Source: Membranipora membranacea (lineage: Eukaryota > Bryozoa > Gymnolaemata > Cheilostomatida > Membraniporidae). Taken from it: 64,000 nt of DNA. Shown one piece after another: positions 19,130-62,549 of the stretch. The notes under the pieces were generated by a model, which was not told where the DNA came from, ran no database searches, and was given only the letters and a program-made list of their open reading frames with translations. Made by a program: the position numbers and the translations under genes. The stretch lies in NCBI GenBank assembly GCA_914767715.1, contig OU612066.1:13023001-13087000 (forward strand), in the 5' to 3' direction. How positions within the stretch are numbered: position 1 is the stretch's first letter; every line of letters begins with the position of its first letter.

Positions 19130-19468
19130 CAGTGGCGTATATTAGCACTCACGGCCCACGGAATTCCGTGAGTGGCTGAATAGCTCAGTGTGTAGAGCGT
19201 TCGCCTTATAATCACTGTTAATAAGATTGTTGTGGGTTCGAATCCCATCAAGTACAGTTTTTTTCAAATGGGTGCTTTATAACTGGAGCGTTTTTACCGT
19301 AATCTTCTACTGCTATTGAGTTGTTTTCTGAAAGTACTCAACAGCTCAGTGTGCTATTGAAATACCTCTCTGCTTGCACTATTTTGCTACCGATATGCAA
19401 AAATTCCCGATTATTATGCTCGTCTCTGAAAAGTCAGTGAGTGAAATTTTTTAGAATATACGCCCCTG
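19130..19468 (+). mobile_element. hAT-like MITE, copy 2 (339 bp) with tRNA-like core
   Basis: Same family as 11434-11938 but in the opposite orientation and without the GC-rich module. The ends CAGTGGCGTATATTAG and (inverted) CAGGGGCGTATATTCT are flanked by a perfect 8-bp duplication ATCATGTC (19122-19129, 19469-19476). The flanking locus itself contains a local direct repeat (ATATGTTATATTGATGACTAGGATA-like on both sides), so part of the host sequence was duplicated around the insertion. Confidence 0.85.
19175..19250 (+). other. tRNA-derived sequence inside the MITE
   Basis: TAGCTCAGTGTGTAGAGCG (from 19181) has the D-arm GCTC/GAGC pairing and A-box pattern. GGTTCGAATCC (19235-19245) is an exact B box, with a T-stem GTGGG/CCCAT. 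The anticodon arm does not fold properly and the variable part is too long, so this is a tRNA relic and not a working tRNA gene. Pol III transcription is possible but inferred. Confidence 0.6.
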
Positions 19469-32100: not shown

Positions 32101-35100
32101 TAATCTGGTGGGTAATTACGCTGACTTGAAATCTCAAAAATTATACCAAGGGCGGGTATCATGGTTTTTTTTCGCCAAGGACGAATAATAGATTCGATTC
32201 AAACCAACCTCATAAAGAGGAGCAACTCCTGCTCGTCTCAAATCTGAAATCCGTTTGGCTTTGTGGGTCTTTGTTCTCCGTCGGCGTTCGTTTTAACAAG
32301 GCTCACTTTTGCTCTAAAAAAACATGCCAAACAGCAACATTGAAAAATTAAATCTCTGTCGGAGTCTTATCAAACTCCGACAAGTTCAAGCTCTTATTGG
32401 CCTTAATCAAAATCCAGAATATGGAGATCCTCGGATAATCTGGTGGGTAATTACGCTGACTTGAAATTTCAAAAATTATACCAAGGGTGGGTATCATGGT
32501 TTTTTGTCGCCAAGGACAAAAAATAGATTCACTTCAATCCGACCTCATAAAGAGGAGCAACTCCTCCTCGTCTCAGATCTGAAATCCGTATGGCTTTGTG
32601 GGTCTTTGTTCTCTGTCGGCGTTTGTTTTAACGAGGCTCACTTTTGCTCTAAAAAAACATGCCAAACGGCAGCATTGAAAAATTAAATCTCTGTCGGATT
32701 CTTATCAAACTCCGACCACTTCAAGCTCTTATTGGCCTTATTCAAAATCCAGAATATGGAGATCCTCGGATAATCTGGTGGGTAAATACGCTGACTTGAA
32801 ATCTCAAAAATTTTACAAAGGGTGGGTATCATGGCTTTTTTTCGCCAAGGACAAAAAATAGAGTCGCTTCAAACCAACCTCATAAAGAGGAGCAACTCCT
32901 GCTCGTCTCAAATCTAAAATCCGTTTGGCTCTGTGGGTCTTTGTTCTCCGTCAGCGTTCGGTTTAACGAGGCTCACTTTTGCTCTAAGAAAACATGCCAA
33001 ACGGCAGCATTGAAAAATTAAATCTCTGTCGGATTCTTATCAAACTCCGACCAGTTCAAACTCTTATTGGCCTTATTCAAAATCCAGAATATGGAGATCC
33101 TCGGATAATCTGGTGGGTAATTACGCTGACTTGAAATCTCAAAAATAATACCAAAGGTGGGTATCATGGTTTTTTATCGCCAAAGACAAAAAATAGATTC
33201 GATTCAAACCAACCTCACAAAGAGGAGCAACTCCTGCTCGTCTCAAATCTGAAATCCGTTTGGCTTTGTGGGTCTTTGTTCTCCGTTGGCGTTCGTTTTA
33301 ACGAGGCTCACTTTTGCTCTAAAAAAACATGTCAAACGGCAGCATAGAAAAATTAAATCTCTGTCGGATTCTTATCAAACTCCAACCAGTTCAAGCTCTT
33401 ATTCGCCTTATTGAAAATCCAGAATATGGAGATCCTCGGATAATCTGGTGGGTAATTACGCTGACTTGAAATCTCAAAAATTATACCAAGGGTGGGTATC
33501 ATGGTTTTTTTTCGCCAAGGACGAATAATAGATTCGATTCAAACCAACCTCATAAAGAGGAGCAACTCCTGCTCGTCTCAAATCTGAAAGCCGTTTGGCT
33601 CCGTGGGTCTTTGTTCTCCGTCAGCGTTCGTTTTTAACGAGGCTCACTATTGCTCTAAAAAAACATGCCAATCGGCAGCATTGAGAAATTAAATCTCTGT
33701 CGGATTCTTATCAAACTCCGACCAGTTTGTTCTCCGTCGGCGTTCGTTTTAACCAGGCTCACTTTTGCTCTAAGCAAACATGCCAAACGGCAGCATTGAC
33801 AAATTAAATCTCTGTCAGATTCTTATCAAACTCCGACCAGTTCAAGCTCTTATTGGCCTTATTCAAAATCCAGAATATGGAGATCCTAGGATAATCTTGT
33901 GGGTAATTACGCTGACTTTAAATCTCAAAAATTATACCAAGGGTGGGTATCATGTTTTTTTTGGCCAAGGACAAAAAATAGATTCGCTTCAAACCAACCT
34001 CATAAAGAGGAGCAACTCCTGCTCGTCTCAAATCTGAAAGCCTTTTGGCTCTGTGGGTCTTTGTTCTCCGTCAGCGTTCGATTTAACAAGGCTCACTTTT
34101 GCTCTAAAAAAACATGCCAAACGGCAGCATTGAAAAATTAAATCTCTGTCGGATTCTTATCAAACTCCGACCAGTTCAAGCTCTTATTGGCCTCAGTCAA
34201 AAACCAGAATATGGAGATCCTCGGATAATCTGGTGGGTAATTACGCTGACTTGAAATCTCAAAAATTATGCCAAGGGTGGGTATCATGGTTTTTTTTCGC
34301 CAAGGACGAATAATAGATTCGATTCAAACCAACCTCATAAAGAGGAGCAACTCCTGCTCGTCTCAAATCTGAAATCTGTTTGGCTCCGTGGGTCTTTGTT
34401 CTTCGTCTGCGTTCGTTTTAACGAGGCTCACTTTTGCTCTACAAAAACCTGCCAAACGGCAGCATTGAAAAATTAAATCTCTGTCGGATTCATATCAAAC
34501 TCCGACTAGTTCAAGCTCTTATTGGCCTTATTGAAAATCCAGAATATGGAGATCCTCGGATAATCTGGTGGGTAATTACGCTGACTTGAAATCTCAAAAA
34601 TTATACCAAGGCCGGTATCATGGTTTTTTTTCGCCAAGGACGAATAATAGATTCGATTCAAATCAACCTCATAAAGAGGAGCAACTCCTGCTCGTCTCAA
34701 ATCTGAAATCCGTTTGGCTTTGTGGGTCTTTGTTCTCCGTCGGCGTTCGTTTTAACAAGGCTCACTTTTGCTCTAAAAAAACATGCCAAACAGCAACATT
34801 GAAAAATTAAATCTCTGTCGGAGTCTTATCAAACTCCGACAAGTTCAAGCTCTTATTGGCCTTAATCAAAATCCAGAATATGGAGATCCTCGGATAATCT
34901 GGTGGGTAATTACGCTGACTTGAAATTTCAAAAATTATACCAAGGGTGGGTATCATGGTTTTTTGTCGCCAAGGACAAAAAATAGATTCACTTCAATCCG
35001 ACCTCATAAAGAGGAGCAACTCCTCCTCGTCTCAGATCTGAAATCCGTATGGCTTTGTGGGTCATTGTTCTCCGTCGGCGTTTGTTTTAACGAGGCTCAC

Positions 35101-36916
35101 TTTTGCTCTAAAAAAACATGCCAAACGGCAGCATTGAAAAATTAAATCTCTGTCGGATTCTTATCAAACTCCGACCACTTCAAGCTCTTATTGGCCTTAT
35201 TCAAAATCCAGAATATGGAGATCCTCGGATAATCTGGTGGGTAAATACGCTGACTTGAACTCTCAAAAATTTTACAAAGGGTGGGTATCATGGCTTTTTT
35301 TCGCCAAGGACAAAAAATAGAGTCGCTTCAAACCAACCTCATAAAGAGGAGCAACTCCTGCTCGTCTCAAATCTAAAATTCATTTGGCTCTGTGGGTCTT
35401 TGTTCTCCGTCAGCGTTCGTTTTAACGAGGCTCACTATTGCTCTAAAAAAACATGCCAATCGGCAGCATTGAGAAATAAAATCTCTGTCGGATTCTTATC
35501 AAACTCCGACCAGTTTGTTCTCCGTCGGCGTTCGTTTTAACCAGGCTCACTTTTGCTCTAAGCAAACATGCCAAACGGCAGCATTGAAAAATTAAATCTC
35601 TGTCGGATTCTTATCAAACTCCGACCAGTTCAAGCTCTTATTGGCCTTATTCAAAATCCAGAATATGGAGATCCTCGGATAATCTGGTGGGTAATTACGC
35701 TGACTTTAAATCTCAAAAATTATACCAAGGGTGGGTATCATGTTTTTTTTGGCCAAGGACAAAAAATAGATTCGCTTCAAACCAACCTCATAAAGAGGAG
35801 CAACTCCTGCTCGTCTCAAATCTGAAAGCCGTTTGGCTCTGTGGGTCTTTGTTCTCCGTCAGCGTTCGATTTAACAAGGCTCACTTTTGCTCTAAAAAAA
35901 CATGTCAAACGGCAGCATTGAAAAATTAAATCTCTGTCGGATTCTTATCAAACTCCGACCAGTTCAAGCTCTTATTGGCCTCAGTCAAAAACCAGAATAT
36001 GGAGATCCTCGGATAATCTGGTGGGTACATACGCTGACTTGAAATCTCAAAAATTATGCCAAGGGTGGGTATCATGGTTTTTTTTCGCCAAGGACGAATA
36101 ATAGATTCGATTCAAACCAACCTCATAAAGAGGAGCAACTCCTGCTCGTCTCAAATCTGAAATACGTTTGGCTCTGTGGGTCTTTGTTCTTCCTCTGCGT
36201 TCGCTTTAACGAGGCTCACTTTTGCTCTAAAAAAACCTGCCAAACGGCAGCATTGAAAAATTAAATCTCTGTCGGATTCTTATCAAACTCCGACCAGTTC
36301 AAGTTCTTTTTGGCCTTATTCAAAATCCAGAATATGGAGATCCTCAGATAATCTGGTGGGTAATTACGCTGTAATGAAATCTCAAAAATTATACCAAGGG
36401 TGGGTATTATGATTTTTTTTCGCCAATGACAAAAAATAGATTCGCTTCAAACCAACCTCATAAAAAGGAGCAACTCCTGCTCGTCTCAAATCTGAAATCC
36501 GTTTGGCTCCGTGGGTCTTTGTTCTCTGTTAACGTTCGTTTTAACGAGGCTCACTTTTGCTCTAAAAAACATGTCAAACGGCAGCATTAAAAAAATTAAA
36601 TCTCTGTCGGATTCTTATCAAACTCCAACCAGTTCAAGCTCTTATTCGCCTTATTAAAAATCCAGAATATGGAGATCCTCGGATAATCTGGTGGGTAATT
36701 ACGCTGACTTGAAATCTCAAAAATTTTACCAAGGGTGGGTATCATGGTTTTTTATCGCCAAAGACAAATAGTAGATTCGATTCAAACCAACCTCATAAAG
36801 AGGAGCAACTCCTGCTCGTCTCAACTCTGAAATCCGTTTGGCTTTGTTGGTCTTTGTTCTCCGTCGGCGTTCGTTTTAACAACGCTCACTTTTGCTCTAA
36901 AAAAACCTGCCAAACG
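26173..36916 (+). repeat. 335-bp satellite array, block A, with higher-order structure
   Basis: About 32 monomer equivalents of 334-336 bp in head-to-tail order. A monomer runs from CGGCAGCATTGAAAAATTAA through CAGAATATGGAGATCCTCGG and GAGGAGCAACTCCTGCTCGT to GCTCTAAAAAAACATGCCAA. Six monomers are cut to 118 bp by the same internal deletion of about 217 bp, with junctions at 26561, 28359, 29813, 31267, 33727 and 35515. Spacings are 1798, 1454, 1454, 2460 and 1788, which equal 5, 4, 4, 7 and 5 full monomers plus one truncated. A variant with CAACATTG and GGAGTCTTATC recurs at about 27630, 32335 and 34795. The last two are again 2460 bp apart, so multi-monomer blocks were amplified together. 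Frames of 60-88 codons recur but change phase every unit; none is a gene. Confidence 0.95.
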
Positions 36917-37121
36917 CCCAGCAAACGCAAAATGTTTTTAAAATGTTTTGTACCTCGTGATAATGTTGTGATCGGGCAATTGCATTCAAGAGCATACTCC
37001 CTGATATTGTTGTATGATATCGGGTTGACTGGCTGAAACGCATCTCATTGGAGATATCATATTATTGTGTTTAAAACATCGCCTCAAAATGTTATTCCCA
37101 TCACCTCACAAAATTATTTTT

Positions 37122-37363
37122 TGTAACATTATCAGCAAGTTTTGACATAACGCTCTAACGACAAGCTATCCAAAATGTTCCCATAACTCCAATATAATAT
37201 CTAGCAATATTGATATCCAATGTCTTTGTTTTAACAATTTTGTGTAACATTATCCACCTGTTGTGACATAACGTTTTAACGAGAAGTTTTCCAAAATGCT
37301 ATGATAACTCCGATATAATATCCAGCATGATTGATATGCCATGTCCTTGTTGTAACAAGGTGC
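37122..37363 (+). repeat. 121-bp subterminal tandem repeat at left end of the island
   Basis: Two diverged copies start TGTAACATTATC at 37122 and 37243. They share GACATAACG, CCAAAATG, AACTCC and ATATAATATC. The motif ATAACATTATC / GATAATGTTRTG also occurs beside both terminal repeats, so these may be binding sites for a mobilising protein (inference). Confidence 0.7.
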
Positions 37364-38908
37364 ACCGACTGTTACTGTAACATCTAGTGGAATTGACTAT
37401 ATGGCAATTTGACAAATATGCTTTCATGACACTCTGTTAATGTTCTGAATGACTTCGTGGAATGACATCACTACAACTTCTTGAAGCTTATCCAACAATA
37501 ACATCATGGCAAAACAGGTGTAAAATTGTTCTCTCAAAATCATTTTGTAACCTGATCAAAACAATATCAATGAATAATCATCAGTAATTATATGATTACT
37601 GTGTCTCAGAGCTTTGCAAAATTTTATCAATAGATATCACAGATAGTATATTTTATTATCTTTCATTTTATCTGTTTAGAAACATTTATTCTGACTGCAA
37701 CTTGTGAGTGAATAAGTGGTTTCCACTATTTGAATAGCATATTTTTAGTTGTGGGAGCATTTTAGGCTAATGAGGCTTGGGTCAACGTCCAGTTGAGTGT
37801 GGTTTACAGGATTGAACAACTTTTTGTGAAAGGTTGATAGTCATGCTGCGGCCCATCATGCGACGATTGGCTGTATTTTGCTGCAAGGCACGCAGCTGAG
37901 TTTAACGAGGTTTTATGTTTGTGTTGCGAGTTCATATCATGTTCACCGTCTACCATATGTCCACAAGCAGTGCGAATAATAACCACCATACCAGTTCTAA
38001 TTTGTTCTGAAAAATTGACATTTCTAACCCTCATTTTATGCGTATGTCACATGGGCTTATGCAAAATTAACATCCGATGATGAATTGGGAGTTGTTCTCT
38101 CATGAACCATAATGTCATTGGGACTGCATTACGTTTATCATCTAAGCATAACCCAGGAATTATACACAGATGCTACAATTCCATACGAAAACTGGTTGGA
38201 CCACATGCCATCGGAATTTTAACTTCATGTAGGAAGATCATGTAAAATAATATTAGCTGCTTAAATTGGAAGATAGAAATCATACAATATGACTTTTTGT
38301 TGACTATGCAGGAATGTGCACAGCAGCGTATCAAGTTTGAGAACTACCGCTATTTCTGTTTCAAGGTTTAAAGTCTGATGTCACAAAGACAATCAGCCAT
38401 ACATTTAAAAACACAAAATTACACCCCGTACACGTGGGCACAGCAACTGCAATATATTTAATAAATTGCTTTGCTTGCTTCAACATAAATAACTGTATAA
38501 TAGAAATCCTTGAATTAGGAGAAAAAGTATCGTAAACAATTTTATGCACACGCTTAACAAAGAGTTGCTCCCACTTGCATAAAAAATCACATTTATACAT
38601 TGTTCGAATAAATTCCTAAGGTTCAAGGATTCCACACCATGCAATAATTGTTCATCACCTGAGGGATTGCTCATTGGGCACTATTGAATTACTTTTAGGG
38701 CCTGGTGTTGTCTGAATAAGTGGAAATTATATAAAAAAAAAAGCGATGCTCGAAGCTTTTCTTGATCTATTGTGAGGAGAAAACTCTGAGAAGGGCACAA
38801 TCGGATCGTTAATCCTGATTGACCACTATGGCTAGATTTGACCTGAAGGCAGTCAGGGTAGAAATAGTTTGCAGGCAAACCAACAATAAACAATAGTGAT
38901 CACTACAT
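37364..38908. other. Island sequence without recognised gene
   Basis: AT-rich, non-satellite DNA. Minus-strand frames at 37804-38034, 38361-38674 and 38681-38893 have no domain, splice pattern or start context I can defend. Confidence 0.4.
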
Positions 38909-39499
38909 CATAGGTGCCCAAACTTGTCTTACCATGGGTCATATTCGCAGTTTAGAAAATGTCCGTGGGCCAAGAGTAGTTATGCTTGGTGATTATTGAT
39001 AGTCGCTAGGAGGCCCCATAACAAATATTTTGCTTCATAATTTTGAACATTGCATGAGGAAATAATTTTTTTGGGCTAGTGAACTGACTAATCCAAATAA
39101 TCACATGTCCTGGTTGAGGATTTTTCAAAACTGATTCCATTCGGAAAATGAGCAAATAAGCGAATAAGAGGGCGGCTTATAAAAACGGGAGAATCAGAAC
39201 CATTCAGGGGCGTACTGTAATTATTTTTGTTGTAGAGAACTAATTCAACAAGTGGGAATTTTTTTGGTGTCCTTTTCTTGCAGACTGATGTTCTCTAGTT
39301 CTGTTCTCTATTCAGTTGTAGGCCAATCCATGTAAGTTTTTTCAGAAAACAGACCATGTTGCATGGTATGAGTTATCAGGACATTTGCGCCCCGCATGAA
39401 TTATCGCCGTTTGTAGAGTGTCACGATGGCAATTGAGCCACTTAAATTTGCTAGTTGTGGGCCACATTTGGCCCATGGGCCCCAATTTGGACACCCTTG
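38909..39499. mobile_element. hAT-like element, 591 bp, nested in the island
   Basis: The ends CATAGGTGCCCAAACTTG and (inverted) CAAGGGTGTCCAAATTGG match at 13 of 18 positions. The 8-bp duplication CACTACAT is perfect (38901-38908, 39500-39507). GGCCCATGGGCC-like phrases next to the ends recall hAT families of animals. No transposase ORF. Confidence 0.8.
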
Positions 39500-41643
39500 C
39501 ACTACATAGTCATGGTTTGAAGTTAAAATCTGGTTTTCAGTCTTCCTAAAATTTAAACGAATTATAAAGTACATTTAGTACAAAAATTATCACATTTACA
39601 TGTTCACTTTGAAATCTCAGCAAACAACAATTCAACTTTGAGAAATGCATAATGATTGATAGGGTTTGCTCCTCACACTTACATAGAAATTAATTAATCA
39701 AGGGTAAGTCCAACAAAAGAACTTTGCTGGCGAAGTGTTGGAGGATAAATACCATCAATCAAGCAATTTATCAGTTCACAATGTATTACAAGTGTATCCC
39801 TAAAACATCCGCCTCCATTACAATTCGGCAATCTAGACAACAAATTAGTTATTTTGGTATCACATTTATACGTGGCTGTCTGCGCTGAAGGTAAAAAGCT
39901 CACATTTAAAAATCAGAAATTGAAATTCTAGCGATACATACTATAGAAATGATTCCTAAGAGTATGATTTACAGGGTGGATTTCTCCCTTTTGATTGTGA
40001 CCCTGCCATCTTTTACCAAAGCGCCTAGTAAGTAAACCCAGCTGAGGGGTTAGGGGGCGCTGGAAGCCCACCCAACGGGGTTCGGCGCAGAGCCCCGGCC
40101 CCAAAGCCTAGAGAGCAATTTTGGGCCTTTGCATTGCATTGACTGGGTTTTGTAGGAGTGTCTCAGGTGAAAATTCACAAGCAGATTACTAAAAGAATAA
40201 AGCAGTCAACCTAAATAGTATGCAACCTACAGCCACGATCGCCATCCCGAACGCCATAAAGGGCTGCCTGTGGGTTGTTTTTTGTTGTAATCTATCTTAT
40301 CATACAATCAAGGTGCTTGTCAATTAGATCAGGAATAATTCTGCCTGGTATCATACCTAATAACCTAAAGCATGACATAAGTATTCCAAATGACAGCACC
40401 TTAATCGGCCGCCTGTATATCAACGAAGTGTTTTTTCTGAGGGAGATCAATTAAATTAGCTTGAGCAGACACAGCTGAATTTTATTGTGAAAAAAACTAT
40501 GGAGCTTAGCTGACTTTGAACAAGAGAAAATCACAGATGAGTATGGGCTAATAAATTCTGTGTTAATTTGGCCTCAGTTCAATCTGTGCTAAATAAGGGA
40601 CAGTTTGTTGACACCCTCTGATTATTATGATTATAACACTGGGCTAATACAATTCACTGCTAAGCTTCTGATCCCACTGTTGAATAGAGTTGATGATTGA
40701 CTGTCCATTCATACAGTTATAAAATTGTCAATTTAAATAAACATACATCATCTAGTATTGTCATTTACATGAAATAGGCCTATATTATGTAACTTTGGGG
40801 TGTGGCGGTATACTTTAGAACATTCCTGTTGCTCTCTTCCACCGGTCACGGCCTGCGGCGTAACCAGTTGATCAGGAGCGACTCGGAATGCAGGCAAATG
40901 GACCAAACTTGGTCTAGTATACTAGGACATGGCCCTTATATTTTAATTAAGAGGTAACATGAGTGAATATAATTAGGCTGAGTATTATGTAACCTCAAGG
41001 TCAGATTATCAAACCATTACTGGCTAGGTTTCATCTGGCTGAAAAGTGTGATGGCAGTCATAAGATCAAAGTGATAAACATCATGAAATTCCTTTGCCTT
41101 GATAATGATCGATCAATCACATGCAGGTATGGTGTAAGACTACCTGTCATACATGACAAGTTGTCATACATGACAAGTTGGCAGACCCAGAAATCAGGAG
41201 GTCTCCAAGGACGAACTATAAACCCGGACTACCACTCTGCGTCCAAGAGTGTGGATGCAATTTAGGCCTAATGTATGATATTTCCAAGCCAAAACTTGAC
41301 TGTAAATTTTATTAATTGCATAATTTTACCTCATTATGTGGATGAAATTGTCTTGATTTAACCAACTTGGGCGGAGCAGCCATAACAACACTGGTAGGTA
41401 AGGCTCGAATATTGAATAGCCGCTTACAATACGTAGTGTTAATAAGCAAATACATAGGTATGTGTACTGTGATGGTAGGAGAACACAGTAACTCTTGCAA
41501 AGGGTAGCTTCAAAAACTTTCTGAGTAAAGGAAGCTGGAAAAGGGAGGAGAAAGGGAGATAGGGAGGGGATGGGAATTACCCCTAAAAACTGGGAGCCTC
41601 CCTACCAAAAAGGGAGACTTGTCAGGTATGCTACCTGCATGTG
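39500..41643. other. Island sequence, possible minus-strand exons only
   Basis: A minus-strand frame at 39903-39694 has an acceptor-like TTTTTACCTTCAG just upstream of its coding part. Another, near 41400-41330, reads MAAPPKLVKSRQFHPHNE before a GT. They could be exons of an unknown gene, but I cannot join or name them. A GC-richer patch (about 40020-40140, with GGGGCGCTGG and GCGCAGAGCCCC) looks like a dispersed repeat. Around 41140-41180 a near-palindromic TTGTCATACATGACAAG is repeated twice in tandem. Confidence 0.3.
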
Positions 41644-41689
41644 ATCACAGAGTAAGGATATATATATATATATATCCTTACTCTGTGAT
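41644..41689. repeat. 46-bp perfect palindrome with AT core
   Basis: ATCACAGAGTAAGGATA is followed by alternating TA and the exact inverse TATCCTTACTCTGTGAT. It would extrude a cruciform or form a long RNA hairpin. It may be a tiny foldback or a replication-slippage product; function unknown. Confidence 0.85.
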
Positions 41690-41922
41690 GTGATCATAAT
41701 GCTGTTGACTGTAGTAATAATTTTTTCTAAGTTTGCATTTGACATGATCTGGCAACTGTCACTGCGGGAGGTTAATCTTCGACTATGTTGTCCTTTTTAT
41801 GAACTCAGGGACTGTGGAAATAGTGTACAAATCCTCTGTCTGTTTAGACAGAATCATTACGGAATGCACTTTCTATTGAATAAGTCAGAGTCATACACTT
41901 AGGTGCAAGATTTACTAGCTTA

Positions 41923-42605
41923 AGGTGTGGCTACATGTCACGATTTTTACATCGATTTGGGGTCACGAGTGGTTAATCGGTGGATCTGCACGAGTGATTA
42001 CTCGTGTTAAGTGGACATCCAACTTGTTGGTCTTTTGCCCGAGTGATCTAGACGATCCTCTATGCTGATTGGTTGTTGATTGCTTGCTTAAATAATTACG
42101 CGGTTAAACACGTCATCTATCAAATCGTGACAGGCTATCAAAAATGGAGGAGTTGATAATATCTGTAGTTAAATCACATCCTCCTATTTATGATAAAAAA
42201 GACCATAACTACAAAGATAGGAGTGGTGCTGTAGTGAAAATATGGAAGGTAATAGCTGTATCACTTGGAAATGGAAGCTGTCCTGACATGACATCCATAG
42301 TATAGCATAGGAAAATCAATTTTACAGAAGAATGAAATTTTATTTGGTGAAGATTCTAAGTGACAAAGACCCGGATTTAATATGACATATCCGGTCATTT
42401 GTTAACACGCCCATTAAATATCATTGGTCAATCGATTGAACTGAGGGAGTTAATTGGTCAATCTAGGCACCTGATTTATTACCCCACTATAACTCACTAA
42501 ACCATCGAGTACTAACTCATAGGCCTGTGTAGCAGTGTGAGATCGGCCTAGCATGTCTAGACATGCCATCGGCCTGTGATTACATCGTGACATGTAGCCA
42601 CACCT
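41923..42605 (+). mobile_element. Harbinger-like element, 683 bp, carrying a MADF relic
   Basis: The terminal inverted repeats AGGTGTGGCTACATGTCACG... are identical over 22 bp at both ends and are flanked by TTA on each side (41920-41922, 42606-42608). TTA/TWA is the three-base target of PIF/Harbinger elements. The internal 53-codon frame encodes part of a MADF domain, matching the DNA-binding partner protein such elements carry. The transposase gene is absent, so this is an internally deleted, non-autonomous copy. Confidence 0.85.
42144..42305 (+). pseudogene. MADF-domain fragment of a Harbinger partner protein
   Basis: A 53-codon frame starts MEELIISVVKSHPPIYD and continues with HNYKDRSGAVVKIWKVIA. 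This matches the first half of the MADF (Myb/SANT-like) DNA-binding domain: helix 1 with the P-x-x-Y-D turn, then Y-K-D and a W in helix 2. A GT follows the W-K codons (about 42247), so in the parent this may be exon 1 with a donor there. Here the frame runs on to a stop. Too short to be a working factor. Confidence 0.65.
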
Positions 42606-44299
42606 TTACAGACTATGCATGATAATATCTCGCATTATTCAATTTCCATAGGCTAAGTAATTGGCTCATCCAACATTCCCTAAAACCACAAACTGATTGA
42701 TTCAGCAGCCACACGTTTCAAAATTATTATGATGTAAACAATTTCAACAGTTCAATAAAAGGACAGATAATAGTGACTGCAAAATAAGCAGTAAGCCCAA
42801 AATTGACCAGAGGACTATGAACAAGGTTTTTAGGCTACATGAATCTGTACGTACAGGGGGGGGGGTTCTCCTAGTTTTCGCCACATTCTACTGCTCAATA
42901 ATTTATTTTTAACTGTTACCAGTTCCTAGTCTAATTTAAGCTCGACAAATCTTCATCCATGCTTTTTATATTGACCCAGGACGATTAAATGAGGCTAGGG
43001 TGTCAACTAAAACTTTTAATAATTTTTATACCCTTGTATACTGCTGCATTCCTATTCTGCTGTGATAGAATTGAGAGAGTATGGAGTTTTGCAAAAAAAA
43101 ACGATAAAGAAAATCGGAATCAATATAACACATCACATGTAATAATCTGTGGAGTGCCACTAGTATAGACCTTATGACATGAATTAGCACTGCAGTGCAC
43201 TGATGATTAATTATGCATACTGCAACTGCTAACTGCAATTATGCTAACTGCATAATACAGAGGCACTACACAAAGGATCATTGTGTAGACCACAACAAAT
43301 ACCTTATGATATCAGGACCTATGATATTATCTATAAATAGCAAAATTTATAAATAGCACATATGGATCACATTGACCTAGCTCAGTGTCAATCCTCTGGC
43401 ATCCTGTGACATCATGCATCTAACCCTAGCATAAAACATCTTGCTAAAATTTTACAGTATTTTCAGACTGTTCAGATTTTTTACCCAATCGCAGGCACTT
43501 GGTGTCATGGTGTCAGGTAATCAACACACAGTCTTTTTCTGTGATTTGGTTCCGCTTTTTCGATGTTTGCCAGATTATAGGCAGTACCTAACTACTTGCA
43601 TGTCCAAGCATGTCAAAGCATGATTTCCAAGCAATACTAATTAAATAGTACATCTCCAAACAAGCTTTGATCTTTTGAGTGAATAATTTGGCCATTAATT
43701 TGACACTTGTTACCTGGTTATTTCGGAAAGTTTTATAATCGACTTTTAAACGTTTGCAGGGAAATGAGTATACGAGTCATCATTCTGTCTAATTTACCCA
43801 GTCTCCCTATCTTATTTAAATTTTGTGCGAAATATATATATTCTAATCAATTAAATATTTATGATCTGTGTCTGACACAATTAGCCTATTGATAATCTCA
43901 TGCAGTTATAGCAATTCTACCCCATATCATTCCTATGCACACATGGTTGGAGCCACCAAAACTCGTTTGGGCTTCTTGTTGTACTAAGGTACACAAAGAG
44001 ACAACATCTTCATGTGGCGACTTTCTATTCATGATGAACACAGACAACAGTTTCATACACCCACATGAAAAAATCATAGGGTTATGTGAAATAGAGCTTA
44101 TTTCAAGAATTGTGTTGTTACAATATGTGGTCAAAACATTTTATAATTGACCACTATTGATAAGCACCCTTGAGACTTGTAAAGCACAGCCAGCCGAATA
44201 ATTGTAGCTGGCATCAACCACTTGTGCCATCATAGGATACCTCATTCAATTGAAATCTAATCTGAAAACAACATCAGTCTCTCAAACTAGTACAGCAAA
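42606..44299. other. Island sequence without recognised gene
   Basis: Simple-sequence bits include a run of ten G near 42857 and repeated ACTGCA/AACTGC words near 43200-43255. Short frames on both strands overlap each other and show no domain. Confidence 0.4.
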
Positions 44300-47200
44300 A
44301 TGGCTCCAAAAGCACCATTGTATTACATCGTCAGCTCCATTGGAAGAGAGGAAGTAAGCATTGTTAGCAGTAATTGGATCAAAAACTCAACTTTATTAAC
44401 GGAAAAGGACAAGCCAAAACACTCAGTTGTGGTGAGTCATAAATTTTCTTAGCAAACACTTTTTTTTTTAAATTTCCAATATTCAAATATGCAGTTTTAT
44501 TTTAATGATTTCAAATCTATTTTTTAAGATTTATCAAGTTGGTTCATTTGAAAAGAGTGCCATATGGTTGAAATTCCCCAAATACTGATTTTTGGTATAC
44601 ATTGGTGTTTAGCAGCGCCAACATGGATTGACAAGACAAAGCCTCGCAAGTGCCTATGCCTTACTGATCTGTGGATATTCCAAATGTTATCTTGGATTCC
44701 TTTCTTATTGACTAGTGTAACAGCTGCTCTGATTATTTTTTCCAGAAATGCTATTGGCCACCACCCACCACAAACGGAAAAAGCCTCAGGAAGGAGCATG
44801 CATTTCCAGATATTGGCAATTGGAAGTTGCATGACGCGAAGATATTGCAGCTTACAGGTAATGAGACAAAGCTAACATTGTCTACGGCATTGGTTTCAAT
44901 AATTTATCATGATTGCATCACACTATAGGAAAGTACTATATTACGCCGATAAATTCTTGTGGGATATCCCATTCACTTGGTATTATCGGCTGTGGAATCT
45001 TTTAATCTTCGAGGGTGGTTATAGCGGAGATTATAGCTCAAAAAATAATTTCTATAATGAGAGATTTTCAAAAAAAAGCACAGCTGATACATATATCCTC
45101 AGTAACAGGATGGAACTCGGAGTTGCAACCTCAGTCAATTCATATGTATTTGAGCGCTGCACACATAACATGACCACCGCATGCACAATAGAGCCAAACT
45201 TAAGTTCAATCTACAAAAGTTTGCAGTATTAAGCAAGATCGTGTTGCAAACATATGATATTTGGTGTGAGTTGATCATTACTATACACGTTATGGCCGGT
45301 CTAGGTCTTGCTGCTAGTCAGCATTTCCTTTATACTGTGATATATATTAAAATGTATCCCACATTGAGCACCATTATCGATTTGTTGCACTCAAACCCCT
45401 TGCCGGCAATACGTTAAATATGATCTGTGGTTTGTTATGGTCCATATAATAAACAATTTTGTGCCCGGTGCAATCATTTGACTAAGAAAATAATTCAGTT
45501 GTAATTTTTTAAAGATGATGGTGATGGAGAAGAGAGGAATGGTGCAAATGATGACAATAGTACACATGATGGCAGTAGTATGGCTATACCACTACCGTCA
45601 TTTGATCTAAAGACCTCTCATGGTGAGTTATAACTCAAGATTGATTCATGAGATAAAATGCATTACCAACTTAAAGACCGATTATAGAAGAATCATGATA
45701 GCGGGCCCCACCAGATGCACTTGACTCAGAATTGATTTAATAACCTATAATGTTATTCGAGGCAGCCTCTTCCCAATATATATGTTCAATGATTCGATAT
45801 CTCTGATTTTTGCAACACAATAAGCTAGCCCAATCATCCAGGCGTTGATGTAGTCGCAGAAAGGGATCATTATTATCAGCCAAGTCTATTTTTGACATTG
45901 CCTTGGAGTTGCAATGTCACGGGAAAGGGGTTGACAACTCCGACCATCTGTGAACAATAATTGAAATACACCAGAAGTGCTAAACATCTATTTCTCTCTT
46001 GGTATCTTCAATATCAACTAACATCCGTTGACAGTTAACGTCCACCATGGGTTCAATATTTAGATGGTTTCTGCCAAAGATGAATATCATGGATCCATTT
46101 CGGTTCATTGATAACCCATAGTTACATTAAAAGCAGCCACTTTGTTTTGTTGTTAAGTTTAGAGAGAGTGAAAATACGACTTCAGAATAAGTACCTAACA
46201 ATTTATCGACTGCTAGCAAAAAAATTCTTTGTTTTTAGATGAAGATCTCACTTCAACTCTGAAAGAAAAAAGCCCAGAATTATGAGTCCAGAACCATCGG
46301 CTAGTACGCGTAAGTATCCCTTTCTCTTTTTAGTCTCTGTACAAAAATCAGGCTCCTTGCAACAAAGATACAGTATCCAGTTTTTTCTGAGACTTGAACA
46401 GTATTGCTCAAATGAGAGAACAATATTGGAATAGATAATAGCCAGACAACTTTGGACCGGAACTGAGATCTACCTCCGCTTCTAACACTTAATTGGAATG
46501 CCTCAGAATCATGCATAGGTGGTTCAATATATCAGTGCACTCTTTAAAACATGTTCATTGCAGTAAGATGAAGTTGGATTGAACCTATAGCAGGACAATT
46601 TCAAAAAGAATACAGATAAGCTTAAGATTTTTGAAAACTTATCATCTGAAATCCTTTTCACATATTTTGGTCAAATATTTGAATAAATTCCAACCAATAG
46701 ATTGGCCGAGGTCACTGCAGAGTAATCAATTTTGTTGCTGATGATAAATGTGACCAACTTGATCCGAATCGATACGGTAATTTCCGGACTACAATAGCTC
46801 AGTCAAGTTTGCTAGACAGATATTTATCATCTGTTCCTATCAAAACTGTGGACCACCTCGCTACCTTTGTTCTGTAACTAGATTTAAGCTCATTGGTCAC
46901 TTTTTCAGCTCAACAATGGTATACTATAACAACACAACCCTATTAGTAACGAAATACATAAATATCTTATGAGTTGTCCCCCTCTGTGAAAAATGGTGGA
47001 CGACTCCTGATTGAACTGTTGAACCTTGATAAGGAACTTTTAGCATTGAATGGAATACTATGATATTTTAATTCCAAGTTTTTATTGTAGATGGATATTC
47101 ACAATCGTGTGTGGAGTTGGGGGAAACTTCAAATCAGAAAATTGAAAGTGAGTTATTTGAATGTTGATAAATAGATTAATACTCCCTGGATGGCAGCGAC

Positions 47201-49870
47201 CATTTCGATCTAAATCATACATTTTTTTATCTGTTTGTCAATTATTAGGCTGTCACTTACTGCCAACACCAACACAATCAGGCAAAGTAATTCATCCACA
47301 GTCTTCCCTCAAATACAGGACAAAGTACCCCAATATATTCTTTGCGAAACAAAAGACTTTGCCTTTGGTTGTATCGCTGGAAAAAACTTTGTGAATAATT
47401 GGTTGAATGGATTTTCATATTTCTTCTATAGGGTTGCTGACAAACCTTGTTATGAAGGTCAGCAAGATAATCAGACACCTTGAGAGAGGAGAGAGTGGCA
47501 GTTGCTCTGCAGTCGAGAAAAACATACTCGCCATGTTTGAGAGCCCTCTGATATCTCCAGAGGAGCTCACGCTTTTCAACGAGCAACTCAAAGAGGATGA
47601 TACCAAGTATCAGCAGTTTGTAAGTAGACCAGTGGTTAATCAGTACTTTAATTTGCAATATCAAAAATTTTGGGTAGCAAACATGCTGCAAAAATAGGTG
47701 GATATGTAAAATGGTGGCTAGATTTGGCCTGGAGTTCAGGGGTCAAGGGAAGAATCATTTTTGCAGCGCATGATCTACATCTGATATGAATCATGACTGT
47801 GCTCGAATTAGTTTGCTCTTATTAAACCTAACGGCAAAGAGAAGGCGAATTACAGAATGTCAACCATATCGGCAGATCGGCTACATGGGGGCCTGGACGG
47901 AAAAAAGCAGACTTTTTAACTTTCATGACACATATACAGATACGCCATTATAAAAATGTTGTGTTTTTTTCAGTTTCCATAAAATTTATTCTTGCAGCAA
48001 AAATTCTGTGAGACAATCGGAGGAAGGAGCCTCACCGAGGCTGTTTTCACCACAATGAGGAGAGTGGCTTCAAACCATGTTTGGCAGCATTTCACGCTGC
48101 AGGGCACAAAGACAAAACAGTGCCTTGCAGGCACAAGAGTCTTCAAGACGATAGGAAGTAAGTAAAGGGTTTGATGACAAAATGCTGCCTTAAGCGTAAT
48201 TTACACACCTTTGTTGATTCAATGAGTGCTTTCAGAATTATTAGCGGAAGTTACCTGCCCATGAGGTTTTGGAAGACAACTACTTGTGTAAGGCATTTAG
48301 TATGAACCCTCATGTGATGGGCAACATAGACAATTGTTATTCATTATTTACTCTGTGAGCTTTTAAGGGTAGAAGCACATGATATTTATGAGCAGGCAGG
48401 GGTAGTGGTTCTCACTGTACTTCAAAAATTTTATGATAAATCTAGACAGGACATGAAATGGAGTATTAGCAGTGATGCATTTATTCTAGGGTGCCATTAC
48501 ACCATTGGGATGTGTAGTAGCAACGGTGTTATCATCAATCATACCTTGAGTTTGAGCTTTTCGAGATCAACTGATATTAATTTTAATCTACCCTATAGGA
48601 GTTTAGTTTTCGCGGCATTTAGGATTCGCATTTCGGTTGATTCCTAGGTTGCGAAATTTAGTGTATCTTAAATTAAACTCACTCACCATAGTTGCATAAA
48701 CAATGTACAATTATACAGGAACACACCTTCCCAAGCATGCAAGCTAGCGTGGTGTAGTGGTCTAAGTGTCTGCCTTGCAATCAGATGGAGAATTATGCCC
48801 AGCTTGGACATTTTTTTTAAATTTTCACTAGTAAGCCTACTAGCGAAATTTAGTTCCAGGTCCAGATAGCGAAATTAAACTCTAGCTAAATTAAACTCCT
48901 ATAGGGTAAATGATTTCTTTAACAAATAACAACTCGAACGTGATTGTGAAACGCTGCTCAATCTCATGCAATTTTCAAACTCAAAACCCAATTAAAGTTG
49001 ATCAAGTAGTAAATAAAACCTGGACTGCAGACCAAATGAGAACAACATTGCCAATAAACATTTCAATGGTCAAAACTCAAGTGCCTGTATATTGTGCTTT
49101 GTTTAAGTTTCTTATGTTCACTATGTTTTACCCCAGTTTTGTTTGACTGCCTGCGCTGCCTTCTAGTAATTGATATGTTTACCTTTCAAAGGAGCTGTGA
49201 GGGCACTGGGACACAATGACACTGTGTTGATAGAGAAGATGGGGGATCTCTGTAGAGCCGCACCTAATCAGAAGGGCGGCATCAACTTTAGTGTTGGAAA
49301 CAAAATGTAAGTTGAGTGGCAAATGGCCTGTCATGACAACCTTTGTTGGGTGGGGAGGGGGCGCCGACAAAGCTTGTCAAGACATACTATCTGGCTCAGT
49401 ACAATGAATTGCACACAGACTGGCACTTTTAGGTTAATTGCAGTTCAAGCTCCAGGTAGTTAAGTTTCATTGAAATACTTAAGATTGTGTAAGGTCTTTC
49501 AAGTAAGTCTTAGCCTAGTTTTTCTAAACAAGTTACAAATATGTATGCAGCTTGTTAGAACTTAAAGTAGCGAGCAAATAACAAAGGTCATTGCTAAGCC
49601 GATGCTCAATGAATGATAAATTTTTATTTTAGGAGCCCTATTTTGAGTTTTCTATCTGACTCTGTTACCATTCAATCCAACGAATCATATAACTATTTTG
49701 AGCTTTGAGCTCAGACCTCTGTACAAGAGCGGACAACTCCTTAAAATACAAAGGAGTCTTGAAAGAAGCATTGTATCGGTGGAGTTGAACCAAATGCATT
49801 GTAGAAAAACAACTGTAATAAGAATGTGTTGTTATTCTCTTCTTTTAGAAAATCACAGAGCTTACTCTGA
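44300..49870 (+). CDS. DUF4806 domain protein, eight coding exons
   Basis: Exons: 44300-44431, 44746-44857, 45515-45622, 47091-47147, 47432-47619, 47998-48157, 49192-49306 and 49849-49870. They total 894 bases (297 residues). All borders are AG/GT and all phases join. Residues 1-81 form the usual N-terminal module of this family: YYIVSSIGREEVSIVSSNWI, then KCYWPPP and later WKLHDAKIL. Residues 82-136 are acidic and low-complexity. Residues about 165-240 are the DUF4806 core: MFESPLISPEELTLFNEQL, ETIGGRSLTEAVFTTMRRV and VWQHFTLQGTKTK. AATAAA follows at 49904. DUF4806 proteins are widespread in invertebrates, often in many copies, and of unknown role; nuclear or DNA-linked work is guessed. The gene lies wholly inside the TIR-bounded island. 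Confidence 0.8.
46240..46310 (+). other. Possible frame-breaking (poison) exon in the DUF4806 gene
   Basis: Between the third and fourth coding exons, TTTTTAG precedes a 71-base segment ending at GTAAGT. Read in the incoming phase it meets TGA after 15 codons, and its phase does not fit the next exon. Skipping it gives a clean join. It could be an alternative exon causing early termination, a decayed exon, or chance splice sites. Confidence 0.3.
48591..48906. mobile_element. TA-flanked MITE (316 bp) with tRNA-like segment
   Basis: The ends CCCTATAGGAGTTTAGTTTT and (inverted) CCCTATAGGAGTTTAATTTA are flanked by TA on both sides (48589-48590, 48907-48908), as in Tc1/mariner-type MITEs. It lies in the intron after the exon ending at 48157. 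The inner part repeats GCGAAATTTAG and AAATTAAACTC words. At about 48744-48800 lies GTGGTGTAGTGGTCTAAGTG with CTGCCTTGCAATCAG, which resembles the D and anticodon arms of a tRNA. The T-arm is lost. Confidence 0.7.
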
Positions 49871-49903
49871 ATGGGGACAGCGATGACTACAACATAGATA
49901 GCC

Positions 49904-49909
49904 AATAAA
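49904..49909 (+). terminator. Poly(A) signal of the DUF4806 gene
   Basis: AATAAA lies 34 bases after the stop codon, followed by an A-rich stretch. It supports the short last exon. Confidence 0.6.
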
Positions 49910-50230
49910 GTAAAAAAAATAGATATCTAACCAATTTTATTTTTCTCTACCATTAATGTTCATTTTTTACTTTTGATAAACAAAATTGTTGATTACACGT
50001 ATATAATCATCATTGAACATTATTTTGCAATGAATAAAACAACTTGGAACATCACTACACTCTTTGCTAATCAGATGACGAATATGAGGATTTGATAGAC
50101 TTGTGAGGTAAACAGAGCTTTGAAAGTTGTAGTGATGAAGCAATGGCTGTTGTCTTACTGTCATTGCTGTGCAGTGCAAATCGTCAAGTCATTTAAATTT
50201 GGAAATTTTAATGGAGTTCAGCATTGACGA

Positions 50231-50400
50231 ATTGGATTGTTATGATGACGTTATATAAATGGTTTGTCCAAATATCGGGCAAAAACATGCTTTTAGCAGA
50301 GTTCGACGATGACGGATTGGATTGTTATAAAGACATTATCTAGATGGTTTCTTCAAATATCGGGCAAAATGCGCTCAGGGAATCGCCACAATACTGGGTT
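50231..50400 (+). repeat. 85-bp subterminal direct repeat at right end of the island
   Basis: Two copies start ATTGGATTGTTAT at 50231 and 50316 and share ATGGTTT and CAAATATCGGGCAAAA. This mirrors the tandem repeat near the left end in position but not in sequence. Confidence 0.65.
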
Positions 50401-50595
50401 TCAATGATAAAAAATTTTATCGTGAAACTGTTATGAAAACATTTTGTAAAACATCGTTCGAAACTATTATCACGGCAATAAAATTGTGTCTACACATTTT
50501 GCTATTTTGATGTCGTGGCACGACGTTATCACGAGGACCACTACTGTTATGATAATGTTATCAGAATATTTTAATAACATTTTGTGTTTGCTGGG

Positions 50596-53500
50596 CGGCA
50601 GCATTGAAAAATTAAATCTCTGTCGGATTCTTATCAAACTCCGACCAGTTCAAGTTCTTTTTGGCCTTATTCAAAATCCAGAATATGGAGATCCTCAGAT
50701 AATCTGGTGGGTAATTACGCTGTAATGAAATCTCAAAAATTATACCAAGGGTGGGTATTATGATTTTTTTTCGCCAATGACAAAAAATAGATTCGCTTCA
50801 AACCAACCTCATAAAAAGGAGCAACTCCTGCTCGTCTCAAATCTGAAATCCGTTTGGCTCCGTGGGTCTTTGTTCTCTGTTAACGTTCGTTTTAACGAGG
50901 CTCACTTTTGCTCTAAAAAACATGTCAAACGGCAGCATTAAAAAAATTAAATCTCTGTCGGATTCTTATCAAACTCCAACCAGTTCAAGCTCTTATTCGC
51001 CTTATTAAAAATCCAGAATATGGAGATCCTCGGATAATCTGGTGGGTAATTACGCTGACTTGAAATCTCAAAAATTTTACCAAGGGTGGGTATCATGGTT
51101 TTTTATCGCCAAAGACAAATAATAGATTCGATTCAAACCAACCTCATAAAGAGGAGCAACTCCTGCTCGTCTCAACTCTGAAATCCGTTTGGCTTTGTTG
51201 GTCTTTGTTCTCCGTCGGCGTTCGTTTTAACAAGGCTCACTTTTACTCTAAAAAAACCTGCCAAACGGCAGCATTGAAAAATTAAATCTCTGTCGGATTC
51301 TTATCAAACTCCGACCAGTTCAAGTTCTTTTTGGCCTTATTCAAAATCCAGAATATGGAGATCCTCGGATAATCTGGTAAGTAATTACGCTGACTTGAAA
51401 TTTCAAAAATTATACCAAGGGTGGGTATCATGGTTTTTTTTCGCCAGGGACAAAAATAAATTCGCTTCAAACCAACCTCATAAAGAAGAGCAACTCCTGC
51501 TCGTCTCAAATCAGAAATCCGTTTGGCTCCGTGGGTCTTTGTTCTCCGTCTGCGTTCGTTTTAACGAGGCTTACTTTTGCTCTAAAAAAACATGCCAAAC
51601 GGCAGCATTGAAATATTAAATCTCTGTCGGATTCTTATCAAACTCCGACCAGTTCAAGCTCTTTTTGGCCTTATTCAAAATCCAGAATATGGAGATCCTC
51701 GGATAATCTGGTGGGTTATTACGCTGACTTGAAATTTCAAAAATTATACCAAGGGTGGGTATCATGGTTTTTTTGCGCCAAGGACAAAAAATAGATTCGC
51801 TTCAAACCACCCTTATAAAGAGGAGCAACTCCTGTTCGTCTCAAATCTGAAATCCGTTTGGCTCCGTGGGTCTTTGTTCTCCGTCAGTGTTCGGTTTAAC
51901 GAGGCTCACTTTTGCTCTAAGAAAACATGCCAAACGGCAGCATTGAAAAATTAAATCTCTGTCGGACTCTTATCAAACTCCGACCAGTACAAGCTCTTAT
52001 TGGCCTTATTCAAAATCCAGAATATGGAGATCCTCGGATAATCTTGTGGGTAATTACGCTGACTTGAAATCTCAAAAATTATACCAAAGGTGGGTATCAT
52101 GGTTTTTTTTCGCCAAGGACAAAAAATAGATCCTGTTCAAACCAACCTCATAAAGAGGAGACAACTCCTGCTCGTCTCAAATCAGTAATCCGTTTGGCTC
52201 CGGGGGTCTTTGTTCTCTATCATCGTTCGATTAAACGAGGCTCACTTTTGCTCTAAAAAAACATGCTAAACGGCAGGATTGAAAAATTAAATCTCTGTCT
52301 GATTCTTATCAAACTCCGACCAATTCAAGCTCTTTTTTGCCTTATTCAAAATCCAGAATATGGAGATCCTCGGATAATCTGGTAAGTAATTACGCTGACT
52401 TGAAATTTCAAAAATTATACCAAGGGTGGCTATCATGGTTTTTTTTCGCCAAGGACAAAAAATAGATTCGCTTCAAACCAACCTCATAAAGAGGAGCAAC
52501 TCCTGCTCGTCTTAAGTCTGAAAGTCAATTGGCTCTGTCGGTCTTTGTTGTCCGTCAGCGTTCGTTTTAACGAGGCTCACTTTTGCTCTAAAAAAACATG
52601 CCAAACGGCAGCATGGAAAAATTAAATCTCTGTCGGATTCTTATCAAACTCCGACAAGTTCAAGCTCTTATTGGCCTTATTCAAAATCCAGAATATGGAG
52701 ATCCTCGGATTATCTGGTGGGTAATTACGCTAACTTGAAATCTCAAAAATTATACCAAGGGTGGGTATCATGGTTTTTTTTCGCCAAAGACAAACAATAG
52801 ATTCAATTCAAACCAACCTCATAAAGAGGAGCAACTCCTGCTCGTCTCAAATCAGAAATCCGTTTGGCTCCGTGGGTCTTTGTTCTTCGTCTGCGTTCGT
52901 TTTAACGAGGCTCACTTTTGCTCTAAAAAAACATGCCAAAGGGCAGCATTGAAAAATTAAATCTCTGTCGGATTCTTATCAAACTCCGACCACTTCAAGC
53001 TCTTATTGGCCTTATTCAAAATCCAGAATATGGAGATCCTCGGATAATCTGGTGGGTTATTACGCTGACTTGAAATTTCAAAAACTATACCAAGGGTGGG
53101 TATCATGGTTTTTTTGCGCCAAGGACAAAAAATAGATTCGCTTTAAACCACCCTTATAAAGAGGAGCAACTCCTGCTCGTCTCAAATCTGAAATCCGATT
53201 GGCTCCGTGGGTCTTTGTTCTCCGTCAGCGTTCGTTTTAACGAGGCTCACTTTTGCTCTAAAAAAACATGCCAAACGGCAGCATTGAAAAATTGAATCTC
53301 TGTCGGATCCTTATCAAACTCCGACCAGTTCAAGCTCTTTTTGGCCTTATTCAAAATCCAGAATATGGAGATCCTCGGATAATCTGGTGGGTTATTACGC
53401 TGACTTGAAATTTCAATATTATACCAAGGGTGGGTATCATGGTTTTTTTGCGCCAAGGACAAAAAATAGATTCGCTTCAAACCACCCTTATAAAGAGGAG

Positions 53501-62268: not shown

Positions 62269-62549
62269 TAAAAATCAAACTTTCCTAAAGTTGTTTTTTA
62301 GACTGAAATTAATCCAAAACAAATGCTCAAGTATCTCAGCGCAGCTCCAATAGTCAGAGTCGTCTGGCCCTCCCAACAAGCCCCGACAACTCCAACGTGT
62401 TTTATAAAGTACTGATCTGACAACAAGGAAGTCATGTGATCACTTTGTATTGAATTGTGGGAGACTTAAACTCATCAATCCTTTGGTTGCTAGCCTTGAG
62501 ACTGTGAACTACCCACCACCTTGTGACTACTGTATTTAATGATAGCTAA
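62269..62549. other. Junction between satellite and retroelement
   Basis: About 280 bp of non-satellite sequence with no gene. It may be the 5' part of the retroelement or plain host DNA; no terminal repeat was recognised. Confidence 0.4.

What the first reader, a model, noticed from the sequence alone, without database searches (positions are those of the whole stretch)
36917..50595. Giant 13.7-kb TIR-bounded insertion in a satellite, carrying a DUF4806 gene
The two borders of a unique-sequence island have matching inverted ends (30 of 34 bases, CCCAGCAAACRCAAAATGTT...) and shared subterminal CCTCGTGATAAYGTYGTG. The satellite monomer is broken at a single point with 2 bp (CG) duplicated. This is what one transposition event leaves. 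The cargo is a complete intron-containing DUF4806 gene, and no known transposase was recognised. Either a MITE-type family has mobilised host DNA at very large size, or DUF4806-bearing elements are an undescribed class of giant transposon. The role of the gene is inference.
Basis: partly seen in the sequence, partly recalled or inferred. Interest (0 to 1): 0.88.

Follow-up and report, generated by a model that had tools for sequence, protein, structure and literature searches.

The report
Giant transposon carrying a DUF4806 gene
The island is one copy of a family of about 14-kb jumping DNA elements that has recently spread through this genome, nearly always carrying the same intron-containing DUF4806 gene but no recognisable enzyme of its own for moving.

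Summary
The borders are real: 30 of 34 terminal bases match as inverted repeats and the target is duplicated as CG. In the window's own genome (339 Mb, 18 contigs) the left end has 38 matches and the right end 37; 32 of 38 left ends pair with a right end in inverted orientation. Pair lengths run from 7.7 to 47 kb, 23 of 32 between 13.0 and 15.1 kb. Exact 2-bp target duplications flank 28 of 32 pairs (TA in 15). The DUF4806 core exon lies inside 29 of 32 pairs, same orientation. So this is a giant inverted-repeat transposon family, not a MITE. The nearest sister differs at 14 of 12,990 aligned bases.

No Pfam transposase was found in six frames of two copies, and over 18 copies the exons show no overall sign of selection. 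Best reading: a non-autonomous element moved in trans with a captured DUF4806 gene. A 17.4-kb subfamily could hold the enzyme but could not be read. A 670-bp satellite duplication at the window copy's insertion point is unexplained.

The parts
36917..50595 (+). Whole element, 13,679 bp; one of 32 end-paired copies in the genome
   Evidence: Ends; copies
36917..36950 (+). Left terminal inverted repeat
   Evidence: 30 of 34 with the right end; 38 matches of the 67-bp left end genome-wide, 18 of them identical over 67 bases, window included
50562..50595 (-). Right terminal inverted repeat
   Evidence: 37 matches of the 100-bp right end genome-wide, window included
36915..36916 (.). Target-site duplication CG, left copy
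   Evidence: Exact 2-bp duplication in 28 of 32 pairs genome-wide
50596..50597 (.). Target-site duplication CG, right copy
36953..36970 (+). Subterminal motif, left
   Evidence: pair I15 (89%)
50519..50536 (-). Subterminal motif, right
   Evidence: pair I15
37116..37357 (+). Two 121-bp subterminal tandem repeats (81% alike)
50206..50369 (+). Two subterminal repeats of 79 nt spaced 85 bp (81% alike)
44300..49869 (+). DUF4806 gene. Exons modelled: 44300-44431, 44746-44857, 45515-45622, 47091-47147, 47432-47619, 47998-48157 (core), 49192-49306, 49849-49869; introns of the model GT-AG
   Evidence: Splice model by eye and script; PF16064 27.7 bits, cut-off 25
45254..45256 (+). Place of an internal deletion of about 1 kb that removed exons 2b and 2c from this copy and its sister C7:15758682
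41922..42606 (+). Nested 685-bp element with 23-bp perfect inverted ends, absent from the 9 other full copies; a MADF-like open frame inside (19.4 bits, below the cut-off of 22)
36245..36916 (+). Satellite, left copy of the 670-bp duplication flanking the element
   Evidence: 99.55% to 50596-51267
50596..51267 (+). Satellite, right copy of the 670-bp duplication
26445..36916 (+). 335-bp satellite array, left of the insertion
50596..62275 (+). 335-bp satellite array, right of the insertion

Best explanation
The island is a recently inserted copy of a giant, non-autonomous inverted-repeat DNA transposon. Shown: a multi-copy family with conserved ends, 2-bp target duplications, mostly 13-15 kb long, with a DUF4806 gene in almost every copy. 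Inferred: a transposase supplied in trans binds the CCCAGCAAAC ends, excises the whole unit and joins it to a 2-base staggered target that is usually AT-rich. The DUF4806 gene was captured before the present subfamilies arose and now rides as cargo without being needed in each copy. In the window the copy landed in a CG of a satellite monomer, and an unequal exchange at or near that break may have duplicated two monomers.
For: 38 left and 37 right ends, 32 pairs in inverted orientation. Exact 2-bp target duplication in 28 of 32 pairs: TA 15, AT 4, AA 2, TT 2, CG 2, TG 2, GA 1. Of 10 other places fetched, 9 have both ends and align over most of the island in pieces of 94.6-99.8% identity (one of them lacks about 2.7 kb); the tenth is interrupted by another element. 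DUF4806 core exon in 29 of 32 pairs, same orientation. The nearest sister differs at 14 of 12,990 bases, apart from the nested element and a few small gaps, so the activity is recent. No Pfam transposase in six frames of the window copy or of the copy at C7:8262007. Over 18 copies exons are about as variable as introns (86 of 1006 against 456 of 4920) with 69 replacement, 16 silent and 3 stop changes; 71.7%, 24.0% and 4.3% are expected without selection (p = 0.21). A clade of five insertions carries damage in exon 2c (four a 1-bp loss, one lacks the exon), so these copies probably moved without a full-length protein of their own.
Against: No autonomous partner was found, and exact end patterns showed no other family with these ends. 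Two insertions of 17.3 and 17.5 kb were not read and might encode a transposase. The core exon 7 has 7 replacement to 6 silent changes against 62 to 10 elsewhere (Fisher p = 0.014, chosen after seeing the data), which hints at some constraint on the protein. Exon 2c begins and ends in the same phase, so skipping it would keep the frame.
Confidence: 0.55

Rival explanations
1. The DUF4806 gene is the element's own accessory gene, for instance a BEN-like DNA-binding protein that helps transposition or evades silencing, and an autonomous longer form (the 17.3-17.5 kb subfamily) encodes the transposase.
For: The core exon is in 29 of 32 pairs, including the 17.3 and 17.5 kb insertions, whose exon 7 is 94% identical to the window's. 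DUF4806 genes are expanded in two hydras (69 and 54 genes, 0-6 in five other cnidarians) in a table that also lists transposase-associated domains (PMC7642931 section 15). [quoted passage not shown]
Against: No overall sign of selection in the exons of 18 copies. Broken copies multiplied. Three of 32 pairs lack the core exon.
Confidence: 0.25
2. An undescribed recombinase, encoded by the DUF4806 gene itself or by exons not recognised by Pfam, moves the element; it would be a new transposon superfamily.
For: No Pfam transposase in six frames of two copies. The ends and target duplications do not fit the CACTA or ISL2EU definitions seen in papers.
Against: No second coding region stood out: the left 7 kb has only short open frames and, in 10 copies, varies like introns (353 of 6589 against 240 of 5116 positions). 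One short stretch there (38779-38925) is conserved, 1 of 146 positions variable, but that is not exceptional among 515 overlapping windows.
Confidence: 0.1
3. The copies are segmental duplications of a genomic region, not transpositions.
For: 14 of 32 pairs lie on contig C7 and 8 on C5. Two pairs of C7 copies share their flanks.
Against: By eye the other flanks printed differ from one another, and 28 of 32 are interrupted between an exact 2-bp duplication; copies lie on 9 contigs.
Confidence: 0.03
4. The island's place in the satellite is an assembly join.
For: The 670-bp satellite duplication at the insertion could come from mis-threading through identical repeats: the first differences between neighbouring units lie 32 bp to one side and 99 bp to the other.
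Against: Both element ends recur with the same structure elsewhere in the genome, and the two flanking repeats differ at 3 positions.
Confidence: 0.02

Closest known systems
Giant and gene-capturing eukaryotic DNA transposons (Pack-MULE type and others; review PMC6431247, passages seen)
   Same: Inverted ends enclose captured gene sequence; presumed mobilisation in trans
   Different: The passage describes Pack-MULEs as packed with gene fragments. Here a multi-exon gene is kept in nearly every copy of a 13-15 kb unit
CACTA (Chapaev-Mirage-CACTA; PMC6004678, passages)
   Same: 2-bp target duplication, inverted ends
   Different: Ends here are CCC...GGG, not 5'-CAC...GTG-3'; no transposase found
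ISL2EU (PHIS superfamily, PMC4482050, passages)
   Same: 2-bp target duplication; found in animals
   Different: ISL2EU has AT duplications, ends usually starting GG, and THAP and YqaJ proteins; here AT is 4 of 28, ends start CCC, and neither protein was found
Tc1/mariner (recalled)
   Same: TA is the commonest target (15 of 28)
   Different: 13 of 28 exact duplications are not TA; no DDE transposase found

Membership tests
Cut-and-paste inverted-repeat DNA transposon (general) | Inverted ends at the exact borders in many copies | tested here: met
   32 of 38 left ends paired with a right end
Cut-and-paste inverted-repeat DNA transposon (general) | Constant-length target duplication | tested here: met
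   Exactly 2 bp in 28 of 32
Cut-and-paste inverted-repeat DNA transposon (general) | Encoded or partner transposase | tested here: inconclusive
   None by Pfam in two copies; the 17-kb subfamily was not read
MITE | Short non-coding units in high number (recalled definition) | tested here: not met
   Shortest of 32 pairs 7.7 kb; 23 of 32 are 13.0-15.1 kb
CACTA | 5'-CAC...GTG-3' termini | tested here: not met
   CCC...GGG; definition from PMC6004678
CACTA | 2-bp target duplication | tested here: met
ISL2EU | AT target duplication | tested here: not met
   AT in 4 of 28 exact duplications; definition from PMC4482050
ISL2EU | THAP/DDE and YqaJ proteins | tested here: not met
   No Pfam match to them in six frames of two copies
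Tc1/mariner | TA target (recalled) | tested here: not met
   TA in 15 of 28 exact duplications
DUF4806 (PF16064) | Score above the curated cut-off | tested here: met
   27.7 and 28.1 bits, cut-off 25
Gene-capturing (Pack-type) element | Cargo derived from a host gene still present elsewhere | tested here: inconclusive
   One diverged exon-7 match (C5:726185, 83% over 156 bp) may be a source gene or an old copy; the PF16064 genome search did not complete

The most novel reading that the evidence does not exclude
A new superfamily of giant DNA transposons in which a DUF4806/BEN-like gene is a conserved working part, mobilised by an undescribed enzyme that may be encoded in the longer 17.4-kb subfamily. 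DUF4806 expansions in other animals, as reported for hydras, would then mark the spread of such elements.
Probability: 0.13. Interest if true: 0.9.

Novelty: new variant of a known kind. Interest (0 to 1): 0.68.

Why it matters
Cut-and-paste elements of about 14 kb that spread recently and keep a multi-exon gene in nearly every copy are, as far as I recall, unusual in animals. If the gene is cargo, this is a natural case of repeated whole-gene mobilisation and shows that the unknown transposase tolerates very long elements. If the gene is functional, it gives DUF4806, a domain without assigned function, a first testable role. The term DUF4806 is in 4 open-access papers of the library; from the listings and the two papers whose passages I saw, none treats it as transposon content. 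The other two were seen as listings only.

Tried and rejected
MITE reading: rejected, no pair shorter than 7.7 kb and no other family with the exact end patterns (looser patterns not searched). Positive selection on the DUF4806 protein: 8 of the 10 full copies (two with large deletions in the gene were left out) gave 37 replacement to 3 silent changes and 1 stop (p = 0.006), but 18 copies gave 69 to 16 and 3 stops (p = 0.21), so I do not claim it. In one search no row was dropped; three copies had exon 1 cut by my fetch and two had deletions, whose edges may add a few false differences. A 672-bp target duplication as a property of the element: rejected, none of the 9 other full copies has one. 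A weak BTB_2 match (E 0.046 and 0.029, below the cut-off) was not pursued. A 71-bp candidate exon at 46239-46309 was dropped from the gene model because it breaks the frame; it is 71 bp in each copy that has it. Searches that gave nothing: phages, viral contigs. Prokaryote contigs gave 5 matches in bacterial records, four of them Marinobacter, taken as unrelated. Rfam and tRNA scans gave nothing. Protein searches gave one 94% match over 62 aa from an unnamed 1,988-bp contig, whose four differences from the window agree with other copies of this family, and one DUF4806 protein at E 0.88, which is not significant. The organism was not identified.

Limits: of the 32 pairs I read 10 in full (window included) and 8 for the gene only; C7:3027022 was read for 19 kb, 1.1 kb of it element; for the rest only the ends. 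Counts from the genome search DNA searches are lower bounds by its own statement. An earlier count said 24 of 32 pairs are 13-15.1 kb; one search gives 23, which is what I report.
Full report
Observation. The island 36917-50595 has inverted ends (30 of 34; 36 nt with the flanking CG). None of 100,000 random 34-mer pairs from the island reached 30 matches, and the 20-base end pattern with up to 3 mismatches occurs nowhere else in the window. The flanks are two parts of one 335-bp satellite array. The joined flanks, with one CG removed, align to intact units through the joint (best 96%). Base composition sets the island (37.3% GC, CpG observed/expected 0.51) apart from the satellite (41%, 0.95-0.96) and makes it like the left part of the window (36.5%, 0.50).

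The gene. Splicing by GT-AG sites gives an open frame of 297 aa that passes the DUF4806 cut-off (27.7 bits, cut-off 25). Unspliced six-frame translations show no DUF4806 and no transposase. Other copies have two more exons, 2b and 2c, in the stretch that the window copy lost; both are present in 14 of 18 copies. With them the protein of copy C5:26578790 is 342 aa and scores 28.1 bits.

The family. A 67-bp left-end query has 38 matches in the window's own genome, 18 of them identical over 67 bases, window included. A 100-bp right-end query has 37. 32 of 38 left ends pair with a right end in inverted orientation within 60 kb; 6 left and 5 right ends stay unpaired. Lengths: 7.7, 10.3, 11.3 and 11.6 kb, then 23 from 13.0 to 15.0 kb, then 17.3, 17.5, 19.7, 30.2 and 47 kb. 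Two exact patterns for the ends give the same 70 places, with none for the reversed control pattern; 69 of 70 are ends in the two lists above and one is not (C4:25833829). So at this stringency there is no MITE set and no other family with these ends.

Target sites. The window and the 9 other full-length copies fetched all have exact 2-bp duplications (10 of 10). Of 22 further pairs 18 have them. Sum 28 of 32: TA 15, AT 4, AA 2, TT 2, CG 2, TG 2, GA 1. The four misses are TA/AA, TA/TT, GC/CA and one (C5:22033498) whose left match begins two bases inside the end; I count it as a miss, although shifting by those two bases would read TA/TA. Two pairs of copies on C7 share flanks (C7:6940626 with C7:7537493; C7:6207396 with C7:7593092), so these look like duplicated regions and not separate insertions. 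The clustering on C7 (14 of 32, p about 1e-7 if independent) is partly due to that.

Content of the copies. Of 10 other places fetched, 9 have both ends and align over most of the island in pieces of 94.6-99.8% identity; one of these (C7:7593092) lacks about 2.7 kb that holds most exons. The tenth, C7:3027022, matches the first 1.1 kb and is then interrupted by a virus-like element. It has the right end at 30.2 kb with a TA duplication, and the DUF4806 core exon. The 685-bp nested element at 41922-42606 is absent from the same place in all 9. The DUF4806 core exon is found at 36 places: inside 29 of 32 pairs in the same orientation, and at 7 outside. By position, five of those seven lie near an unpaired end of the family. 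The three pairs without the exon are 7.7, 11.3 and 11.6 kb long.

Age and selection. The closest copy, C7:15758682, differs from the window at 14 of 12,990 bases and shares the 1-kb deletion. Pairwise identity among 10 full copies is 97.7-99.9%. Over 18 copies exons vary about like introns (86 of 1006 and 456 of 4920), with 69 replacement, 16 silent and 3 stop changes against an expectation of 71.7, 24.0 and 4.3% (p = 0.21). An earlier count on 8 of 10 copies (37 to 3, p = 0.006) did not hold. The core exon 7 has 7 replacement to 6 silent against 62 to 10 elsewhere (Fisher p = 0.014); this was chosen after seeing the data and is a lead only. Of 18 copies: 2 have all nine modelled coding exons open (exon 9 not checked); 3 are open in the exons seen, but exon 1 was cut by my fetch, and one of these three (C2:36676110) shows one splice dinucleotide that is neither GT nor AG; 3 are open but lack exon 2c or both 2b and 2c (window, sister and C6); 10 have a frameshift, a stop or missing exons. 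Four insertions share the 1-bp loss in exon 2c, and a fifth in the same clade lacks 2c.

Mechanism. Shown: ends, 2-bp duplications, recent copies. Inferred: a transposase acting in trans, since none was found in six frames of the window copy or of the C7:8262007 copy. The gene behaves like cargo. The strongest open alternative is that the 17.3 and 17.5 kb insertions, which have different flanks, exact TA duplications and core exons 94% identical to the window's, are the autonomous form.

The satellite duplication. Comparing the array with itself at a shift of 670 bp gives 98.2-100% identity for the two units that flank the insertion and about 89-95% in the 168-bp tiles next to them. Because neighbouring units are identical for 32 bp on one side and 99 bp on the other, the exchange point is fixed only to about 130 bp around the insertion. 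Against a special cause: at longer shifts other 500-bp tiles of the array are also up to 99.6% alike (64 tile comparisons at 97% or more), so the array is being homogenised anyway and coincidence is not excluded. None of the 9 other full copies has such flanks (one has matches of 26 and 23 bp only). It therefore most likely belongs to the satellite, by unequal exchange or by mis-assembly, and not to the transposon.

Literature. DUF4806 is in 4 papers of the library. I saw one section of PMC7642931, one passage of PMC11075544, and listings only for the other two. Hydra viridissima and H. vulgaris have 69 and 54 DUF4806 genes against 0-6 in five other cnidarians, in a table of enriched domains that also lists transposase domains (PMC7642931 section 15). 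DUF4806 is described as a subtype of the BEN domain (PMC11075544 passage). Neither text that I saw speaks of DUF4806 as transposon cargo. Definitions of ISL2EU and CACTA come from passages of PMC4482050 and PMC6004678; the Tc1/mariner and MITE definitions are recalled.

Noticed in passing
G000:C7:3027022-3057200 (L026, L027): A copy of the transposon is interrupted after 1.1 kb by a virus-like element with long open frames that look, by recall and untested, like a Polinton (polymerase-, integrase-, protease- and capsid-like); observed only.
   Followed up: no
window 36245-36916 and 50596-51267: 670-bp two-monomer satellite duplication exactly flanking the insertion, 99.55% identical; unequal exchange, mis-assembly or coincidence.
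   Followed up: partly
window 48590-48907: 318-bp element with inverted ends ACCCTATAGGAGTTTA inside the giant element, TA on both sides, enclosing a tRNA-like, SINE-like stretch (recalled resemblance; ARAGORN found no tRNA).
   Followed up: no
window 5574-5872: MITE-like repeat of about 300 bp with inverted ends, apparently in an intron of a transporter-like gene (by eye, not searched).
   Followed up: no
window 11460-11940 and 19140-19450: Two inverted copies of a SINE-like repeat with a tRNA-like head (recalled resemblance, by eye).
   Followed up: no
window 12060-13070: About 1 kb of near-perfect inverted repeat with TGGCGTTGCT tandem units, by eye.
   Followed up: no
G000 contigs C7 and C5: 22 of 32 paired copies lie on two contigs; C7 also seems to have duplicated regions containing the element.
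   Followed up: partly
G000:C5:726185-726340: Diverged DUF4806 core exon (83% over 156 bp), possibly the source gene or an older relative of the element.
   Followed up: no
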